From: an uncultured Dehalococcoidia bacterium
Lineage (GTDB): Bacteria; Chloroflexota; Dehalococcoidia; Lucifugimonadales; G958296245
Length of the DNA: 64,000 nt
Reading direction: 5' to 3'
NCBI GenBank assembly: GCA_958296245.1
Contig: OY282458.1
Coordinates: forward strand, 744,001 to 808,000
Shown here: positions 955 to 63,225 of the stretch, in pieces
Layout of the letters: each line of letters begins with the position of its first letter
Position numbering within the stretch: the first letter of the stretch is position 1
Translations under genes and position numbers: made by a program
The notes under the pieces: model-generated
What the model was told of the DNA's origin: nothing
Seen by the model: only the letters and a program-made list of their open reading frames with translations
The model's database searches: none

Positions 955-1189
955 GAAACTGTTCAGACCTTGTGAGACCCGAAGGGGGGAAGTCCGGAGA
1001 GGTTCTCCGCTCTGGCGGGGGTTGGGGTTCTCCCAGTCTCCGACGGCGGCGGCGTGTACCTGGTCCTCCCTCTGGCAGTGGGTCCTGGGGCCACGCTCCA
1101 GTTACCAAGGGGCGGGTGGGGATCTAAAGACGTCTGCTTTATCGGGGCTGCGCTAGTCGAAAAGGACCTCACGAAGTCTGAACGGTTAC
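955..1189 (+). mobile_element. MITE-like element, copy A (longest), with 8-bp target duplication
   Basis: A 235-bp element with imperfect terminal inverted repeats: left GAAACTGTTCAGAC, right (reverse complement) GTAACCGTTCAGAC, each continuing into T-GTGAG. It is flanked by a perfect 8-bp direct duplication TGTCATCC (947-954 and 1190-1197). It has no transposase; the only ORFs are incidental. Related copies lie at 14845, 23500, 26745, 57965 and 63149. The inner part includes CCAGTTACCAAGGGGCGGG and a block GCTACGCCAGTCGAAAAGGAC shared between copies (copy A has GCTGCGCTAGTC here). Read as a non-autonomous transposable element. Confidence 0.85.
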
Positions 1190-11003: not shown

Positions 11004-12137
11004 ATGCGTCTGTCTTGCCTTCAGGAGAACCTGAACCAGGGGCTCTCCGTGGTCGGGGGAGCAGTTGCCTCGCGCACCACCCTGCCCGTCACCCAGAACG
11101 TGCTGATCGGGACGGACCAAGGACGGCTGAAGCTCTCTGCCACCAACCTGGAGATCGCCATCACAACTTGGATCGGCGCCCAGATCGAAGAAGAAGGAAG
11201 TATCACGGTCCCGGCCAGGCTGTTGACCGACTTCACAACGTCGCTCCCCCCGGAGCGCATCGACTTGAGCACCACGGAACAGCCTCCGCAGATGAGCGTC
11301 CAATGTGCGCGATTCAACGCACAGATCAACGGTGTTGCCGCCGAAGATTTCCCGCCGATACCCACCGTCGAGTCCGGCGTAGCCGTCAAGATAGCGCCGC
11401 AGGTACTTCACAACTCGATAGAGCACGTGGCCTTCGCCGCCGCAACCGAGGACTCCAGGCCCGTCCTCACAGGAGTCAAGGTTGAGGTCGAGGGCGACGA
11501 CGTCACCTTCGCCGCCGCCGATGGATTCCGGCTGGCGGTACATCGCGGCAAGCTCACCGAGCCGGCGTCCGAAGCCGTCAGTTTCATCGTCCCCGCCCGC
11601 GCACTTGTCGAGGTGGGACGCCTCATCGGCGGCCAACAACAGCCCGTCGAGTTCACCGTAACCCCCTCCAAGAGCCAGGCCCTATTCCGCCTGGAGAACG
11701 TGGAGATGGTGACCCAGCTCATACAGGGTACGTTCCCCAACTACTCGCAGCTCATCCCCCAGTCTCACGACACCAAGGGAGTGGTCAGCTTGGAGGAGTT
11801 CTCGCGCGCCACCCGGACGGCGTCCGTATTCGCCCGGGACGGCAGCGGCATAGTGCGTCTCCTGATGTCGGGGGGCGAAAACGGGGCCGTCGGCAAGATG
11901 TCCATCGTCTCCAGGGCCGAAGAGGTTGGGGAGAACATGGGTGAGATCGACGCCAAGGTCGAAGGCGCAGAGTCCAGGATCGCCTTCAACAGCACCTACT
12001 TGACCGACGTGCTTTCGGTGCTCGGCGAGGGTGAAGTCGCTTTGGAGACAACCACGTCTTCAAGCCCGGGCGTGCTCCGCCCCGTCGGCGACGACAGCTA
12101 CGTCCACGTCGTTATGCCGATGTTCGTCACGTGGTGA
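11004..12137 (+). CDS. dnaN: DNA polymerase III beta subunit (sliding clamp)
   Basis: A 377-aa clamp with three domains of about 125 residues. Landmarks: N-terminal MRLSCLQENLNQGLSVVGGAVASR, RPVLTGV near residue 152, FAAADGFRLAV near 170, GTFPNYSQLIP near 245 and the C-terminal VMPMFV. SD GGAGGAGCTAGGA precedes the ATG. It is not next to dnaA or recF, and no DnaA-box cluster is nearby, so the usual origin neighbourhood is absent. The chain has no frame damage. Confidence 0.95.
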   Translation: MRLSCLQENLNQGLSVVGGAVASRTTLPVTQNVLIGTDQGRLKLSATNLEIAITTWIGAQIEEEGSITVPARLLTDFTTSLPPERIDLSTTEQPPQMSVQCARFNAQINGVAAEDFPPIPTVESGVAVKIAPQVLHNSIEHVAFAAATEDSRPVLTGVKVEVEGDDVTFAAADGFRLAVHRGKLTEPASEAVSFIVPARALVEVGRLIGGQQQPVEFTVTPSKSQALFRLENVEMVTQLIQGTFPNYSQLIPQSHDTKGVVSLEEFSRATRTASVFARDGSGIVRLLMSGGENGAVGKMSIVSRAEEVGENMGEIDAKVEGAESRIAFNSTYLTDVLSVLGEGEVALETTTSSSPGVLRPVGDDSYVHVVMPMFVTW

Positions 12138-12149
12138 CGCCCAAGATCG

Positions 12150-12193
12150 AGGATCTCACGAAGTCTGAATAGTTACGCCTGAATAGTTACGCA
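12150..12193 (+). mobile_element. Solo right-end relic of the MITE-like family with a 14-bp tandem duplication
   Basis: GATCTCACGAAGTCTGAATAGTTAC is the right end of the MITE family. It is followed immediately by a second GCCTGAATAGTTAC, so the last 14 bp of the terminus are duplicated. No left end seen. It directly abuts the aapJ1 promoter region. Confidence 0.5.
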
Positions 12194-12208
12194 CTGACCA
12201 TTTCTTGG

Positions 12209-12217
12209 TGTTATAAT
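12209..12217 (+). promoter_or_regulatory. Extended -10 promoter of the aap operon
   Basis: TG-T-TATAAT: perfect -10 with TGn extension, 48 nt before aapJ1. The -35 position falls in or beside the relic MITE end (TTACGC at 19 bp), so the repeat may contribute to the promoter. Confidence 0.6.
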
Positions 12218-12264
12218 CCCTCTCGGCCTGAAGGCCCCAGTTTACGAAGGAGTGGATAATTAAG

Positions 12265-13479
12265 ATGAACGCGCTTAAGTGGATGGTCCGGATCGGTCTA
12301 CTGGTAACCCTCGCGCTGGTCTTGTCCGGTTGCGGGAGCGACGATACAGACATGACGAAAGAGCTGAGCGACAAGGACGCCGAGATAGCTGAATTGAGGA
12401 CGCAGATTGCCGAGATAGATGAATTGAGGGCGCAGATTGCGGAGATGGAATCCGCGGCGATGGAGACGGAATCCGCGCAGATGGAATCCGAGACGATGAT
12501 GGAAGAGCGCGGAGACAGGCTCGAGGCCGTGAGGGAAAGGGGCCGGGTCATATGCGCCAGCAACAATAGCTTGGCAGGCTTTGGGTTCATCGACGACAGC
12601 GGCAACACCGTCGGCTTCGACGTCGATCTATGCCGCGCCGTCGCTGCCGCCGTTCTGGGCGACGCCGACGCGGTGGAATTCCGGCCCACCGTCGCCGCCG
12701 AGCGCGGCCCGGCCATGCAGTCCGGCGACGTGGACATCATGTCCCGCAACACCACTTGGACCACTTCCCGCGACGTCCAATGGGGCAACTTCGCCCAGAC
12801 CATGTTCTACGACGGGCAGGGCTTCATGGTGAGGAAGAGCCTCGGTCTTTCGGGGATGCTTGACCTCGAGGACGCCGCGGTGTGCGTACAGCAGGGCACG
12901 ACCACAGAGTTGAACCTGCAGGACTTCATCAACCAGAACGACCTAAACATCTCAATAGTCACGTTCCCAGACAACGTTTCGGCGAACGAAGCCTACATAG
13001 GCGAGCAGTGCGACTCGCTCACGACCGACCGATCCGGCTTGGTCAGCACACGCGCCGGCCTTGCCAACCCGGACGACCACGTCATCCTCGCCGGCACCAT
13101 CTCCGAGGAGCCGCTGGGCCCCGTCGTCCCCCACGGCGATGAGCAGTGGTACGACGTCGTAAAGGCGGTTATGGCGATGCTCATCTACTCAGAGGCTTAC
13201 GGCATAACCTCGAGCTCGGTCCCGACGTCGGTCACGGGCAACACGGCGGTTGACAGGATGTTCGGTCTCGAGGGCTCCTTCGGCCAGGATGATATGGGAC
13301 TGAGCGATACGGTCGCCCAGGACGTAATCCGCGCCGTCGGCAACTACGGCGAGATTTACGACCGCCACCTCACCCCGCTGGGGTTGCAGCGCGAGGGGAG
13401 CCGCAACGCCCTCTGGAGCGCCGCCTCATGCACCGACTGCCCCAAGGGCGGCCAGGTGTACGCAGCTCCTTTGAGATAG
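12265..13479 (+). CDS. aapJ: Amino-acid ABC transporter substrate-binding lipoprotein with coiled-coil linker (AapJ-like)
   Basis: A 404-aa lipoprotein. Signal peptide with lipobox LSGC (C23). Residues about 30-75 are a charged coiled coil with an internal 11-residue repeat (AEIAELRTQI, AEIDELRAQI, AEMESAAMETE), absent from the next paralogue. Then the solute-binding domain of the AapJ/YhdW type: GNTVGFDVDLCRAVAAAVLGDAD, SGDVDIMSRNTTWT, FYDGQGFMV and the C-terminal NYGEIYDRHL...ALWS...GGQVYAAPLR. It captures L-amino acids outside the membrane for AapQMP. Confidence 0.9.
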   Translation: MNALKWMVRIGLLVTLALVLSGCGSDDTDMTKELSDKDAEIAELRTQIAEIDELRAQIAEMESAAMETESAQMESETMMEERGDRLEAVRERGRVICASNNSLAGFGFIDDSGNTVGFDVDLCRAVAAAVLGDADAVEFRPTVAAERGPAMQSGDVDIMSRNTTWTTSRDVQWGNFAQTMFYDGQGFMVRKSLGLSGMLDLEDAAVCVQQGTTTELNLQDFINQNDLNISIVTFPDNVSANEAYIGEQCDSLTTDRSGLVSTRAGLANPDDHVILAGTISEEPLGPVVPHGDEQWYDVVKAVMAMLIYSEAYGITSSSVPTSVTGNTAVDRMFGLEGSFGQDDMGLSDTVAQDVIRAVGNYGEIYDRHLTPLGLQREGSRNALWSAASCTDCPKGGQVYAAPLR

Positions 13480-13514
13480 CGGGAGCTGGGGAGAAAGAAA
13501 GCAAGTCAGGAAGA

Positions 13515-13560
13515 GCTAAGGGGACGGGCGGCACGGATAGAGGCGGCCCGTCCCCTTAGC
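13515..13560 (+). terminator. Long perfect hairpin between the two aapJ genes
   Basis: Perfect 15-bp arms GCTAAGGGGACGGGC / GCCCGTCCCCTTAGC with a 16-nt loop. It is not followed by a T-run (CAATATGTCTT), so it could attenuate, stabilise the aapJ1 message or be an element remnant. Confidence 0.5.
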
Positions 13561-13752
13561 CAATATGTCTTAGCTTCACCTTGCGCGGTTAAAGAATCTG
13601 CGCGGACATGATAGTAATCCCCAGCAGGTTGTCGAACTAATCTTCCCGGTCATCTCCTAAGGCCCCTCCTAGTCAGGACGGGAGGGTTTGCATTTGAGGG
13701 GACACTCCTTCCAGCAGACCTGCCTGCTCCCCGGAAACAGGGGTTCCACAAG

Positions 13753-14844
13753 ATGAACGGACTCATGAAACTCGTCATCGCAGCAACCCTTTTCCTGGCG
13801 CCTATGCTCCTCATAGCCTGCAGCCGGGAGACTCCCGAGCAGACCTCTGATCCCGCCGCCGCCGAGGGCAGCCGGCTTGACGCGGTTAAGGCGAGGGGCA
13901 ACGTGGTCTGCGCCAGCAATAACGGCATACCCGGCTTCGGGTTCATCGACGAGAACGGCAATCACGTCGGCTTCGACGTCGACCTCTGCCGCGCCGTGGC
14001 TGCCGCCGTGTTGGGCGATGCCGACGCCATCGAGATCGTTCCCATCAGCGCCACCGAGATGGGCGCGACCGTTCAGTCCGGGGACGTGGACTTACTGGTA
14101 CGCACCGTCACCCGCAGTTCTTCCCGCGACGCCAAGTGGGGCAACTTCGCCTATACGATGTACTACGACGGACAAGGCTTCCTCGTCCGCAAAGACATGA
14201 ACGTGCCCAGCGTCCTGGATCTCGAGGGCGCCGCCGTATGCGTAACGCAGGGGACCACCACCGAACTGAATTTGCAGGACTTCTCCAACCAGTACGACTT
14301 GGGCATCCAAGCCGTCACCTTCGAAAAGACCGATTCTGCGGTGGAGGCGTATCGGAACGGGCAATGCGACGCCTTCACCACCGACCATTCGGGGCTGTAC
14401 GCTTATCGGAGCAGCTTGCCGATACCCGATGACCATATCGTCTTGCCCGAAACGATCTCAGAAGAGCCTCTGGCCCCGGCAGTTCCCCACGGAGACGAGC
14501 AGTGGTACGACATCGTGAACATCGTGATGTCCATGCTGGTCTACGCCGAGGCATACGGAATCAGCTCAGATAACGTACCCACCGCCGTTACCGGCAACTC
14601 GAAGGTCGATCGACTGTTTGGGCTGGAGGGGTCCTTTGGGCAGGAGACCCTGGGTATTAGCCGGACGGCAGCCCAGGACGTGATCCGATCCGTGGGCAAC
14701 TACGCCGAGATATACCATCGCAGCCTTGGAGACGACGGCATCGGCTTGCCCAGGGGGGACAACACGCGTAACGCCTTGTGGTCCGCCGCCCCCTGCTCCG
14801 ACTGTCCCAAGGGCGGTCAGATCTACGCCTCCCCGCTGCGGTGA
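13753..14844 (+). CDS. aapJ: Amino-acid ABC transporter substrate-binding lipoprotein, second copy (AapJ-like)
   Basis: A 363-aa lipoprotein with lipobox LIAC (C23) and no coiled coil. The binding domain is closely similar to the upstream copy (NHVGFDVDLCRAVAAAVLGDADA, YYDGQGFLVRK, GTTTELNLQDF, CSDCPKGGQIYASPLR), a clear tandem duplication. It reads SGDVDLLVRTVTR where the upstream copy has SGDVDIMSRNTTW, so ligand range may differ. Its TGA stop is part of the target duplication of a MITE-like copy that begins at the next base. Confidence 0.9.
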   Translation: MNGLMKLVIAATLFLAPMLLIACSRETPEQTSDPAAAEGSRLDAVKARGNVVCASNNGIPGFGFIDENGNHVGFDVDLCRAVAAAVLGDADAIEIVPISATEMGATVQSGDVDLLVRTVTRSSSRDAKWGNFAYTMYYDGQGFLVRKDMNVPSVLDLEGAAVCVTQGTTTELNLQDFSNQYDLGIQAVTFEKTDSAVEAYRNGQCDAFTTDHSGLYAYRSSLPIPDDHIVLPETISEEPLAPAVPHGDEQWYDIVNIVMSMLVYAEAYGISSDNVPTAVTGNSKVDRLFGLEGSFGQETLGISRTAAQDVIRSVGNYAEIYHRSLGDDGIGLPRGDNTRNALWSAAPCSDCPKGGQIYASPLR

Positions 14845-15013
14845 GAAACTGTTCAGGCTCTGAGAGACCCGAAGAAGGGGGAGTCCAAGAGAGGTTCCTC
14901 CCCTCCGGCAGAGGGTCTGGGGGCTGTGCCCCAGTTGCCAAGGGGCGGGCGGGGATCTAAAGACGTCTGATTTATCGGGGCTACGCCAGTCGAAAGGACC
15001 TATGAACGGTTAC
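14845..15013 (+). mobile_element. MITE-like element, copy D, inserted at the aapJ2 stop codon
   Basis: A 169-bp copy, GAAACTGTTCAGGC at the left and GAACGGTTAC at the right. Flanks TGCGGTGA (14837-14844) and TGCGGTGG (15014-15021) are an 8-bp duplication with one mismatch. It separates the binding-protein genes from the permease genes. Confidence 0.8.
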
Positions 15014-15050
15014 TGCGGTGGACCTGCCCGGTACGGCATTGCTCTTCATG

Positions 15051-15059
15051 TGTTAGAAT
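15051..15059 (+). promoter_or_regulatory. Possible extended -10 promoter for aapQMP
   Basis: TG-T-TAGAAT, 36 nt upstream of aapQ and 38 nt beyond the MITE copy. It may restore transcription of the permease genes downstream of the insertion. Confidence 0.4.
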
Positions 15060-15094
15060 CCACCCGCCCATAAAGGAGCGTTCGTCAGGTACTC

Positions 15095-16300
15095 ATGGCA
15101 ACCACTCCCCGAGCTTTGACCTACCGCGGCATACCCGTCTGGCGTCATGCCCTGATCATCAGGTGGGTCGTGCAGATAGTGTCCGCCCTGGTGGCCGTGA
15201 CGCTGGTAGTCTGGTTCTTCGCCAACATCGTCGGTGCGATACAGGAACGCGATATTCCCGCCGGTTTCGGCTTCCTGTCACGCGAATATCAGACCCCCAT
15301 CGGCGAGCACTTCATCCCCTACGAATCTTCGGATACCTTCCTATATGCCCTCCTAGTCGCCGCCATCAACACGGTGGTGGTTGCCATTCTTGGCGTGATC
15401 CTAGCAACCATGTTGGGCGTCCTCATCGGGGTGGCGCGCCTGTCCGGTAGCTGGATCTTATCCAGACTGATGCTGGTCTACATCGAGTTCTTCCGCAACG
15501 TACCGCTCCTCGTCCAGCTACTCTTCTGGTTCTTCATCGTGTTGACGCTGCCCCCCGTGCGTGAGGGTTACGTCTTCTTCGACAGGATCTACGTCAACAA
15601 CGCCGGCATATCAATGCCCGGGCCGGTCGGGAGCAGCCTCGCGTCAGCGTCGGCATGGTTGGCTCTCGCCGCGGTCTCAGTGGGCTTGGGCGTGCTCGTC
15701 CACCGCGTTCTGACTTGGCGCGAAGACCGGACCGGGCGGGCCTCGTATCCTCTGGCGGCAGGGATCACCGTCGCCGTAGCGTGCGGCGCGGCGGCCTGGC
15801 TGATCGTGGGATCGGTTGTCGGGGAGGCCCCTCTCGTCATCTCCTCGCCGGAGCCCTACGGAAGGTTCGGACGTATCGGCGGCGGCTTCACCATTCGGGC
15901 CGGTCTGCTGATCCTGCTCATCGGACTGGTGATATACACGTCCGCCTTCGTAGCCGAAATAGTCCGGGCCGGCATCCAGTCGGTCGGGCGCGGCCAGACC
16001 GAAGCGTCCCGGGCATTGGGTCTGTCGGGCATAGACACCCTGCGCCACGTAACCTTCCCACAGGCTCTCCGCGTCATCATCCCGCCGATGATCAGCCAGT
16101 ATCTCAATCTGACGAAGAACAGCAGCCTGGGCGGCGCCGTCGGATACACCGACCTGACCAACGTCGCTATCACCATGACCCAGACCGCCCCGGCGGTGTC
16201 CATATTCCTCCTGATCATGCTCGCCTACCTTGCCATGAGTCTTACTTGGTCGCTGATCGGCAATCTATACAACCGGCACATCCGAATCGTGGGAGGCTGA
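15095..16300 (+). CDS. aapQ: General L-amino-acid ABC transporter permease AapQ-like
   Basis: A 401-aa inner-membrane permease of the HisMQ family. It has the long AapQ-type layout: TM near 25-48, GFGFLSREY, TMs at about 85-150, a large central loop with an extra TM pair (about 188-255), then the EAA loop QTEASRALGLSGIDTLRHVTFPQALRVIIPP near residue 308 that docks the ATPase. EFFRNVPLLVQLLFW is a family hallmark. Pairs with AapM. Confidence 0.9.
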   Translation: MATTPRALTYRGIPVWRHALIIRWVVQIVSALVAVTLVVWFFANIVGAIQERDIPAGFGFLSREYQTPIGEHFIPYESSDTFLYALLVAAINTVVVAILGVILATMLGVLIGVARLSGSWILSRLMLVYIEFFRNVPLLVQLLFWFFIVLTLPPVREGYVFFDRIYVNNAGISMPGPVGSSLASASAWLALAAVSVGLGVLVHRVLTWREDRTGRASYPLAAGITVAVACGAAAWLIVGSVVGEAPLVISSPEPYGRFGRIGGGFTIRAGLLILLIGLVIYTSAFVAEIVRAGIQSVGRGQTEASRALGLSGIDTLRHVTFPQALRVIIPPMISQYLNLTKNSSLGGAVGYTDLTNVAITMTQTAPAVSIFLLIMLAYLAMSLTWSLIGNLYNRHIRIVGG

Positions 16301-16304
16301 GGTA

Positions 16305-17555
16305 GTGGTAGCCGGTCAGGGCACGACGCCCACACCCGCCCCGGTCCTTCCGCCGCGTTCCGAAGTGGGCGCGGTCGGCTGGGCCCGCGCCAATCTCTTC
16401 AGCTCGTGGTACAACAGCCTTCTCACCGTCATCGCCAGTGCGGCGGTTGTGTTGGGACTCTGGTTCGGCCTGAATTGGGTTGTCCTAGACGCCGAATGGG
16501 GCGTTATCGAGACGATTGGCGGACGTTTCATCATCGGCGGGTACAACACCGACCAGGCCTGCCCGGGCAACGACTGCTTCTGGAGGCCGCAAGCCGCCCT
16601 GCTGATGACCACGGCGCTCCTGGGCATGTTATGGGTGGTCGCCGGCGGAGTCGTCGGGCGCATCGCAATGGCGGTTGCGGCCGCCGCTGCGCTCTGCGCC
16701 TTCCTCCCCTACAGCATGGAGAGGATGGGTCTCGACGTGCGGCTGCTGCTGCTCGCCAACCTGCCCGCGCTCGGAGTGGGGTGGGCGCTTGCCCGCTATA
16801 CGCCCGTAGGCAAACCGCGCTGGGTCCTGGTGACAGGTGTGTCCGTCTTCCTGCTCACGGTGGTGCTCCTGCGAGGAATTCCAGGAGTTTGGGGCCTGCA
16901 GCCCGTGCCGACCCTGTACTGGGGCGGCCTCACGCTCAACCTGCTCCTTGCCGTCGCGGGCATCGCCCTGAGCCTGCCCCTCGGCATCGCTCTAGCGCTG
17001 GGACGGCGCAGCGACCTACCGATAGTGAAGCTGCTATGCGTGGCATTCATCGAGATATTCCGGGGCGTGCCGCTGATAACCCTGCTCTTCGCGTCGCAAC
17101 ATCTCGTGCCCCTTGCTTTCCCGGAGGCATTCCCACGGAACTCCCTCTTCAGCGCCGGGGTCGTGATCACCCTCTTCAGCGCGGCGTACATGGCCGAAAA
17201 CATCCGCGGCGGGCTCCAGTCTCTGCATCCCGGACAGGCCGAGGCGGCCCGGGCCCTGGGGCTTGCAGGCTGGCAGACCACGCTCCTAATCTCCCTGCCT
17301 CAAGCCATTCGAAACGTCATCCCGACCATCGTCGGGCAGTTCATCAGCCTCTTCAAGGACACCAGTTTGGTCTATATCATAGGTATGGTGGATATGGTGG
17401 AGATAGGCCGCACCTTCATTCTGGGCAACCCGGAATACAGGATCAGCACCAAGGAGGTCTTCATCTTCATAGCGCTGGTATTCTGGGCCTTCACCTACGG
17501 AATGTCATACGCCAGCCGCCGCTTGGAGCAGCGGTTGGGCGTGGGCACGCGGTAA
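16305..17555 (+). CDS. aapM: General L-amino-acid ABC transporter permease AapM-like
   Basis: A 416-aa HisMQ-type permease starting with GTG 4 bp after aapQ (SD GGAGG). About eight hydrophobic segments. FIEIFRGVPLITLLF is near residue 245, and the EAA loop QAEAARALGLAGWQTTLLISLPQAIRNVIP is near 308. The GTLFKDTSLVYIIG-type signature appears as SLFKDTSLVYIIGMVD. Normal AapM length. Confidence 0.9.
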   Translation: MVAGQGTTPTPAPVLPPRSEVGAVGWARANLFSSWYNSLLTVIASAAVVLGLWFGLNWVVLDAEWGVIETIGGRFIIGGYNTDQACPGNDCFWRPQAALLMTTALLGMLWVVAGGVVGRIAMAVAAAAALCAFLPYSMERMGLDVRLLLLANLPALGVGWALARYTPVGKPRWVLVTGVSVFLLTVVLLRGIPGVWGLQPVPTLYWGGLTLNLLLAVAGIALSLPLGIALALGRRSDLPIVKLLCVAFIEIFRGVPLITLLFASQHLVPLAFPEAFPRNSLFSAGVVITLFSAAYMAENIRGGLQSLHPGQAEAARALGLAGWQTTLLISLPQAIRNVIPTIVGQFISLFKDTSLVYIIGMVDMVEIGRTFILGNPEYRISTKEVFIFIALVFWAFTYGMSYASRRLEQRLGVGTR

Positions 17556-17597
17556 GATGCGCACGTGCGCGCCAAGTCTCATTGCGCGGAGGCGAAA

Positions 17598-18359
17598 GTG
17601 ACAACGGAAGACCAATCTCATGAAGCCGACGACATCATAATATGCCGCGACGTGCATAAGTGGTTCGGCAACTTCCATGCACTCCGAGGCGTCACCACCT
17701 CGGTGCGCAGAGGCCAAGTGGTGGTCGTCATCGGTCCCTCCGGGTCGGGCAAGTCCACCTTCATCCGGACCATCAACCGCCTGGAGTACCACCAGCGCGG
17801 CCAGATCATAGTGGACGGCTTCGAGATGACCGACGACGTCCGCAACATAGACGCCATCCGCCGCGAGGTGGGCATGGTCTTCCAGTCGTTCAACCTCTTC
17901 CCCCACCTCACCGTGATGCGCAACATCACACTGGCCCCGACCAAGGTGCGCCACGTCCCCATTGCCGAAGCCGACGCCGCCGCGCTGGAGCTCCTGGAAC
18001 GGGTCGGCATCCCCGAACAGGCTGACAAGTACCCCGGGGAACTGTCTGGCGGGCAACAGCAACGGGTTGCAATAGCCCGGGCGCTCGCTATGCAGCCCAA
18101 GGTAATGCTCTTCGACGAGCCTACTTCGGCCTTGGACCCCGAAATGATCAAAGAGGTGTTGGACGTCATGAGGGAACTGGCCGCTTCCGGGATGACCATG
18201 ATAGTGGTCTCCCACGAAATCGGCTTTGCCAAGGAAGTGGCAGACAGCATCCTCATGTTCGACGAGGGGAAGGTCATCGAAGAGCGTCCCACGAGTGAGT
18301 TCTTCGACCACCCGCGCGAAGACCGGACCAAGGCGTTCCTCTCGCAGATACTCGGGTAG
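17598..18359 (+). CDS. aapP: Amino-acid ABC transporter ATP-binding protein AapP-like
   Basis: A 253-aa ATPase from the GTG at 17598, chosen for GGAGG upstream. Walker [11 protein letters not shown]-loop [12 protein letters not shown], signature [15 protein letters not shown], Walker [15 protein letters not shown]-loop VVSHE. Closest in style to GlnQ/AapP polar amino-acid ATPases. Last gene of the five-gene operon. Confidence 0.95.
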
Positions 18360-23499: not shown

Positions 23500-23639
23500 A
23501 TAACTGTTCAGACTCTTTGAGACCCCAAGGGGGGGGTCTTCCCTCTGGCAGGGGGTCTGTGGGCTGTGCCCCAGTTACCAGGGGGCGGGCGGGTGGGGAT
23601 CAAAGACGGCTACGCCAGTCGAAAAGGGACCACAGTTAT
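23500..23639 (+). mobile_element. MITE-like element, copy E
   Basis: A 140-bp internally deleted copy. Terminal ATAACTG/CAGTTAT is a perfect 7-bp inverted pair, and the left end continues GTTCAGAC. Flanks CCCATTTT (23492-23499) and CCCCTTTT (23640-23647) are an 8-bp duplication with one mismatch. It lies between two divergent genes. Confidence 0.75.
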
Positions 23640-26744: not shown

Positions 26745-26872
26745 TACCACGTCTGCCGGACCTCGATCCCCACCCGCCCGCCCCTTGCTAACTGGGGGCA
26801 CGACCCCCAGACCCCTGCCGGGGGGGCCTCTCTGGACTCCCCCCTTCGGGTCCACAGAGTCTGAACAGTTTC
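26745..26872 (-). mobile_element. MITE-like element, copy F (reverse orientation)
   Basis: A 128-bp copy read on the minus strand from GAAACTGTTCAGAC at 26872. Flanks TGCCAGTC (26737-26744) and TGCCAGCC (26873-26880) form an 8-bp duplication with one mismatch. The distal terminus (TACCACGTCTGCC) is diverged. Confidence 0.75.
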
Positions 26873-26937
26873 TGCCAGCCCGCTGCGACTGCCCGTATCG
26901 GTGTTTCCCGTAGGCGCCTCACGCCTGTGGGCGCCGA

Positions 26938-57964: not shown

Positions 57965-58047
57965 ACCGGTGTTATGGTCTTTGATTCCCACCCACCCGCC
58001 CTTTGGTAACTGGCGGCACCGCCGCCCAGCCCCCCTGCCGGAGGGTC
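57965..58047 (-). mobile_element. Degraded MITE-like element, copy G, abutting the UGSC stop codon
   Basis: On the minus strand the block GAGACCC, CCGGCAGGGGG, GCCAGTTACCAAAGGGCGGG and AATCAAAGAC matches the core of the family. Terminal repeats are lost or diverged. The last residues of the selenoprotein (QYRP, stop) lie where the left terminus would be (CAGTACAGGCCATGAGACC resembles CTGTTCAGGCTCTGAGAGACC), so the insertion may have supplied the present stop. Confidence 0.55.
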
Positions 58048-63148: not shown

Positions 63149-63225
63149 GTAACCGTTCAGACTTCGTGAGGTTGTCTCGACTGGCGTAGTCCCGATAAAA
63201 GCGGGCGTCTTTTGGTCCCCGCGCC
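63149..63225 (-). mobile_element. MITE-like element, copy H (truncated right end)
   Basis: GTAACCGTTCAGACTTCGTGAGG at 63149 is the right terminus of the family read backward, followed by CTGGCGTAGTCCCGATAAAAGCGGGCGTCTTTTGGTCCCC, matching the inner block of copy A. The other end is absent. Confidence 0.65.

What the first reader, a model, noticed from the sequence alone, without database searches (positions are those of the whole stretch)
14837..15021. MITE copy inserted on the stop codon of aapJ2
The left target duplication TGCGGTGA ends with the TGA stop and the element begins at the next base. The insertion splits aapJJ from aapQMP, and an extended -10 (TG-T-TAGAAT) sits 38 bp beyond the right end, so expression of the permease genes may depend on the element or on this promoter.
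Basis: partly seen in the sequence, partly recalled or inferred. Interest (0 to 1): 0.6.

Follow-up and report, generated by a model that had tools for sequence, protein, structure and literature searches.

The report
Old IS66-type MITE beside transporter genes
A short, worn-out jumping-DNA element of a known type landed right after the stop codon of a nutrient-transporter gene, and comparison with relatives suggests it did no visible damage, because the neighbouring genes have an older promoter of their own.

Summary
Window 14845-15013 (169 bp) is a MITE flanked by an 8-bp target duplication (TGCGGTGA 14837-14844 / TGCGGTGG 15014-15021, 7 of 8). Its genome (2.69 Mb; same order as an uncultured Dehalococcoidia MAG) has 176 copies of the terminal repeat GTAACTGTTCAGA (<=1 mismatch; reversed control 0), and 22 of 63 repeat pairs have 8-bp duplications matching at >=7 of 8. 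The same repeat ends IS66 transposase genes in relatives and resembles published ISDge4 (ISBst12 group of IS66), so this is an IS66-type MITE. No IS66 transposase was found in its own genome and copies are 82-96% identical to their consensus: an old, probably immobile family. The closest orthologue found (G010, 82% AapQ identity) gives an empty site that aligns without gaps across the junction; the TGTGTTAGAAT box before aapQ is there too, so the promoter and the separation of aapJJ from aapQMP predate the insertion. The element has no terminator-like hairpin better than shuffles. Most likely a near-neutral insertion behind a stop codon. Ordinary in kind.

The parts
14837..14844 (+). left target duplication TGCGGTGA; its last three bases are the stop codon of aapJ2
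14845..15013 (+). MITE body, 169 bp, GAAACTGTTCAGG...ATGAACGGTTAC; 89.7% identical to the 178-bp family consensus over 165 columns
15014..15021 (+). right target duplication TGCGGTGG (one mismatch, last base)
15051..15059 (+). extended -10 box TGTTAGAAT, 44 nt before the aapQ start; conserved in relatives without the element
12265..13479 (+). aapJ1, family 3 solute-binding protein
13753..14844 (+). aapJ2, family 3 solute-binding protein
15095..16300 (+). aapQ-like permease
16305..17555 (+). aapM-like permease
17565..18359 (+). aapP-like ABC ATPase
12209..12217 (+). extended -10 box TGTTATAAT, 56 nt before aapJ1
13515..13560 (+). strong hairpin behind aapJ1 (17 of 18 stem positions paired), without a long T run
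12155..12190 (+). remnant of a right end of the same MITE family (CTCACGAAGTCTGAATAGTTAC, then a second partial end) before the aapJ1 promoter

Best explanation
This is an old copy of a high-copy MITE family mobilised, most likely, by an IS66-family transposase of the single-ORF ISBst12 type that was not found in the genome today. It inserted once, duplicating 8 bp, so that the left duplication kept the aapJ2 stop codon and the element became the first 169 bp of the J2-Q intergenic region. aapJJ and aapQMP were already two units, each with an extended -10 promoter; the insertion pushed the aapQ promoter 177 bp further from aapJ2 and left it intact. Its effect on expression is most likely small: a longer 3' end on aapJ2 transcripts and perhaps less read-through into aapQMP. 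Shown by sequence: element, target duplication, family of copies, empty site, conserved promoter box. Inferred: IS66 mobilisation, promoter activity, near-neutrality.
For: TIR and TSD statistics. G050 and G039 (same order) carry IS66 transposase ORFs (PF03050 over cut-off in both; NF033517 over cut-off in G050, below it in the G039 fragment) bounded by GTAACAGTTCAGACTT and GTACCTGTTCAGACTT (G050, both sides) and by GTAACTGTTCAGACTT (G039, one side); many MITE ends read GTAACTGTTCAGACTT. G039 also has short TIR pairs, of which 4 of 5 examined show TSDs of 7-8 of 8. Published ISDge4 has an end GTAACTGCTCAGCA and an 8-bp repeat (PMC12898284, passages). The empty site in G010 aligns gap-free over the junction. 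The box is conserved: summed best score 78 over 13 genomes, shuffles 63.5 +/- 2.4, maximum 73 of 1000. Gene order J-J-Q-M-P is the same in G010 and G014 (of seven relatives fetched G005 also has two J genes, four show one J in the stretch fetched).
Against: No IS66 transposase is found in this genome or in G022, the other MITE-rich genome, and the window copy shares no significant internal sequence with the IS66 elements (best E 0.21), so the link rests on ends and TSD length. The left end here begins GAAAC, not GTAAC. The flanks of the G050 element match only weakly (CTGCAGGA / CTGTGGGA). In 8 of 13 genomes the best promoter box taken alone has P > 0.1; G019 has only 9 nt between J and Q and no box. 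The two-hexamer promoter scan does not report the 15051 box, as it has no good -35. No transcript data exist. The empty site comes from a genome of another family in the order, not from a close strain.
Confidence: 0.78

Rival explanations
1. The element works: as a transcribed inverted repeat it replaces a lost intergenic hairpin, protecting aapJ2 mRNA and limiting read-through, so the binding protein is made in excess over the permease, as the malE-malF structure does in E. coli.
For: Strong hairpins (home-made score >=42) lie between J and Q in 10 of 17 relatives (one of the 17, G019, too short to scan), but not in the joined empty site of G000 (score 10) and only weakly in G010 (25). The family consensus folds to -85.8 kcal/mol against -62.4 +/- 4.8 for mononucleotide shuffles. 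Precedent malEFG and other ABC operons (PMC5927463, passages).
Against: The copy itself does not fold better than dinucleotide shuffles (z -0.80), its best hairpin scores 28 against a shuffled mean of 25.8 and maximum of 33, and the scan found no + strand terminator there. Nothing shows selection on the copy.
Confidence: 0.12
2. The element drives or tunes aapQMP, its presence being needed for expression of the permease genes.
For: It lies directly upstream of the promoter box. 8 of 27 TSD-confirmed copies lie between divergent predicted genes (crude gene caller), so the family often sits near starts.
Against: The promoter box lies outside the element and is present in relatives without it; the scan found no + strand sigma-70-like site in 12100-15200.
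Confidence: 0.05
3. The ends belong to another transposase family and the likeness to IS66 ends is convergent.
For: No IS66 transposase in the genome; 12 of 26 IS66 loci of the phylum showed no such end within the fetched stretch, and eight of the other 14 come from one genome.
Against: First 16 bases equal at the G039 IS66 end; 8-bp TSD; IS66 elements of three other genomes with GTAAC-TCA ends on both sides (L168, L179, L180); ISDge4.
Confidence: 0.05

Closest known systems
IS66 family, ISBst12 group (single ORF), e.g. ISDge4 of Deinococcus geothermalis (PMC12898284, passages read)
   Same: ends GTAACTGCTCAGCA against GTAACTGTTCAGA; 8-bp target repeat
   Different: here no transposase gene; only 169 bp
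Bacterial MITEs with a known or likely parent, e.g. MITECca01 of Cardinium (IS982 parent, 169 copies, 240 bp, PMC9769881) and MITEPsy1 (100 nt, PMC3189936) (passages read)
   Same: short, non-coding, ends shared with an IS; high copy and mostly intergenic as in Cardinium
   Different: different IS family; here no parent is found in the genome and copies are strongly diverged
malE-malF intercistronic RNA structure of E. coli (PMC5927463, passages read)
   Same: sequence between a binding-protein gene and permease genes
   Different: there protection is reported from experiments; here no RNA data, and the copy does not fold better than shuffles

Membership tests
MITE | short, non-coding, terminal inverted repeats, many copies | tested here: met
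   169 bp; TIRs; 176 TIR hits (<=1 mismatch) in the genome, control 0
MITE | target site duplication of fixed length | tested here: met
   8 bp; 22 of 63 pairs at >=7/8; shifted controls 0 of 63 in six, 2 of 63 in one
MITE | empty site in relatives | tested here: met
   G010 gap-free over the junction; no full element in the J-Q gap of the 12 relatives with AapQ identity >=58%; G042 has one TIR-like remnant
IS66-derived (ISBst12-type) MITE | ends GTAAC... shared with an IS66 transposase element | tested here: met
   G050, G039, and L168, L179, L180 of the phylum; the left end of the window copy itself is GAAAC
IS66-derived (ISBst12-type) MITE | 8-bp TSD | tested here: met
IS66-derived (ISBst12-type) MITE | parental transposase in the same genome | tested here: not met
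   PF03050: 0 hits in G000. Not a defining feature of descent; a parent may have been lost, so this lowers 'active' rather than 'derived'
IS66-derived (ISBst12-type) MITE | mobilised in trans by that transposase | not testable with these tools
   needs a transposition assay
intrinsic terminator or REP-like stabiliser | stable hairpin, with T run for a terminator | tested here: not met
   z -0.80
extended -10 promoter | TGnTAnAAT at a suitable distance from the start, conserved | tested here: met
   transcript start not testable here

The most novel reading that the evidence does not exclude
An orphan IS66-type MITE family whose transposase is gone spread through the genome, and at this site the copy has taken over the role of a lost intergenic hairpin, setting the ratio of binding protein to permease.
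Probability: 0.1. Interest if true: 0.5.

Novelty: new member of a known kind. Interest (0 to 1): 0.25.

Why it matters
It links a large MITE family of uncultured Dehalococcoidia (more than 100 TIRs in each of two genomes) to the little-studied ISBst12 branch of IS66, and gives an example, resolved by comparison, in which an insertion next to a stop codon left an older promoter intact. My searches of the paper library for Dehalococcoidia plus miniature inverted-repeat and ISBst12 plus MITE gave no paper; one for Chloroflexota/SAR202 plus MITE terms listed two papers whose titles are on other subjects. That library lacks most subscription journals, so this says little about print as a whole.

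Tried and rejected
IS66 transposase in the own genome: none. Autonomous element between distant TIR pairs (600-3200 bp, target match >=5/8) in the 421 kb in hand: only a tandem array (649 bp) and one weak pair (5/8) came up. MITE as terminator: rejected. Rfam at gathering threshold: nothing in the window. Preference for stop codons: only 4 of 27 TSD-confirmed (>=6/8) copies lie within 10 nt of a predicted stop codon, so the stop-codon position looks like chance (crude gene caller). Alignment of the two flanks by MAFFT was uninformative. Paper searches gave no paper about such an element, judging by listings and, for two papers, passages; two searches were used for precedents. G042 has TCTGAATAGTTAA shortly behind its aapJ stop, a possible old remnant near the same place; G042 has only 2 TIR hits against 2 in the control, so I leave it open.

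Full report
What is there. aapJ2 (13753-14844) ends in TGA; the next base begins a 169-bp element (14845-15013) framed by TGCGGTGA and TGCGGTGG. The own genome (2,685,284 bases, one contig) gave 55 matches to the window query at E <= 0.001, with only 40 of 179 first-look candidates scored, so the number is a lower bound. The terminal word GTAACTGTTCAGA (<=1 mismatch) occurs 92 + 84 times, the reversed control 0 + 0. I fetched places around the 100 listed of these 176 hits and around the matches, 421 kb in all with the window. There, 63 inverted pairs 90-420 bp apart (some overlapping in arrays) were found; 13 have identical and 9 more have 7-of-8 target repeats, against 0 of 63 at >=7/8 in six of seven shifted registers and 2 of 63 in the seventh. 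36 of the pairs, 150-195 bp long, aligned to the window copy; they are 82-96% identical to their consensus and the window copy 89.7%, so the family is old.

Which family. Ends GTAAC... and 8-bp target repeats suggested IS66 (first a recalled lead). Tests: PF03050 has 0 hits in the own genome, hits in 2 of 59 genomes in a search of the order and in 16 of 201 in the phylum at E <= 1e-30. The two in the order are bounded by the MITE's end: G050 GTAACAGTTCAGACTT and GTACCTGTTCAGACTT on the two sides of the ORF; G039 GTAACTGTTCAGACTT behind a transposase fragment. The proteins are IS66 by Pfam (both) and by NCBIfam (G050 over the cut-off, the G039 fragment below it). Of 26 IS66 loci of the phylum, 14 had a similar end (GTAAC[CT]GTTCA, one mismatch) and 12 did not; 8 of the 14 come from one genome, and three (L168, L179, L180) have it on both sides. 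ISDge4, seen to transpose, has GTAACTGCTCAGCA at one end and an 8-bp repeat (PMC12898284, passages). G039 carries short TIR pairs too; 4 of 5 examined have TSDs of 7-8 of 8. TIR counts in the order: G000 176, G022 132, G039 23 with control 4, G050 7 with control 1, G003 7 with control 1, other genomes near control level. The window copy shares no significant internal sequence with the IS66 elements (best E 0.21).

The site before the insertion. AapQ relatives (E <= 1e-40) are in 18 of 59 genomes including the own. G010, the closest (82%), has J1-J2-Q-M-P in the same order, as has G014 in the stretch fetched. With the element and one repeat left out, the window aligns to G010 without a gap over the junction, and both have the stop TGA at the same place. 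Across the 12 relatives of 58-82% identity none has a full element in the gap; G042 has one end-like remnant.

The promoter. In the 55 nt from -70 to -16 before aapQ the best TGnTATAAT match summed over 13 genomes is 78, shuffles 63.5 +/- 2.4, maximum 73 of 1000. G000 and G010 share TGTGTTAGAATC. Singly, 3 of 13 have P <= 0.03, 2 more P < 0.1, and 8 have P above 0.1. In G042, G009 and G039 the fixed register or stretch missed a box seen by eye (TAATAGAAT, TATTACAAT, and GGCTACAAT further upstream). G019 has no gap and no box. In the window, TGnTAnAAT occurs 5 times (mononucleotide shuffles 1.15), each 27-91 nt before a possible same-strand ORF start; one is TGTTATAAT before aapJ1. So both transporter units appear to have their own promoter, the one for aapQMP older than the insertion. 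The two-hexamer scan did not report the 15051 box, which has no good -35.

Structure. The copy folds no better than dinucleotide shuffles on either strand (z -0.80 and 0.82). The family consensus folds well (-85.8 against -62.4 +/- 4.8, mononucleotide shuffles) and the alignment energy is -10.0 against -1.3 +/- 1.2 for shuffled columns, as expected for inverted-repeat ends. A home-made hairpin score gives >=42 in the J-Q gap of 10 of 17 relatives (G019 too short to scan), 10 in the joined empty site of G000, 25 in G010 and 28 in the element (shuffles mean 25.8, maximum 33). Relatives therefore often have a hairpin between binding protein and permease, a layout known from malE-malF (PMC5927463, passages); the element does not clearly replace it.

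Context of other copies. Of 27 copies with TSD >=6/8, a crude gene caller placed 8 between divergent genes, 9 between co-directional genes, 1 between convergent genes, 2 with one neighbour only, and 7 inside predicted ORFs, all 7 within 100 nt of the predicted 5' end, where starts are uncertain.

Names.

Verdict. A confirmed, ordinary IS66-type MITE insertion behind a stop codon; the permease promoter is ancestral; an effect on expression is unproven and probably small.

Noticed in passing
window 955-1189: Another full copy of the family (235 bp) with perfect target repeats TGTCATCC; further partial matches at 23502-23611, 26773-26873, 57991-58045 and 63169-63222.
   Followed up: partly
window 12155-12190: Two partial right ends of the same MITE family lie just before the aapJ1 promoter, behind the preceding ORF that ends at 12137.
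   Followed up: partly
L039 (G000:C1:2000987-2001623), L045 (2221303-2221951), L049 (80863-81393), L050 (234523-235063): Tandem arrays of the MITE with regular spacing (162 bp at 2001030-2001623); in the array at 2221303-2221951 the outer target repeat CTTGCAGC recurs inside it. How they arose was not studied.
   Followed up: no
L057 (G042:C42), a few nt behind the aapJ stop codon: TCTGAATAGTTAA, resembling the MITE right end, lies near the corresponding place in a relative; possibly a second, older insertion near the same spot.
   Followed up: partly
G035, query positions 49-113 of window 14830-15029: About 20 matches cover only the G-rich core of the element without its ends, so the core may belong to another repeat.
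   Followed up: no
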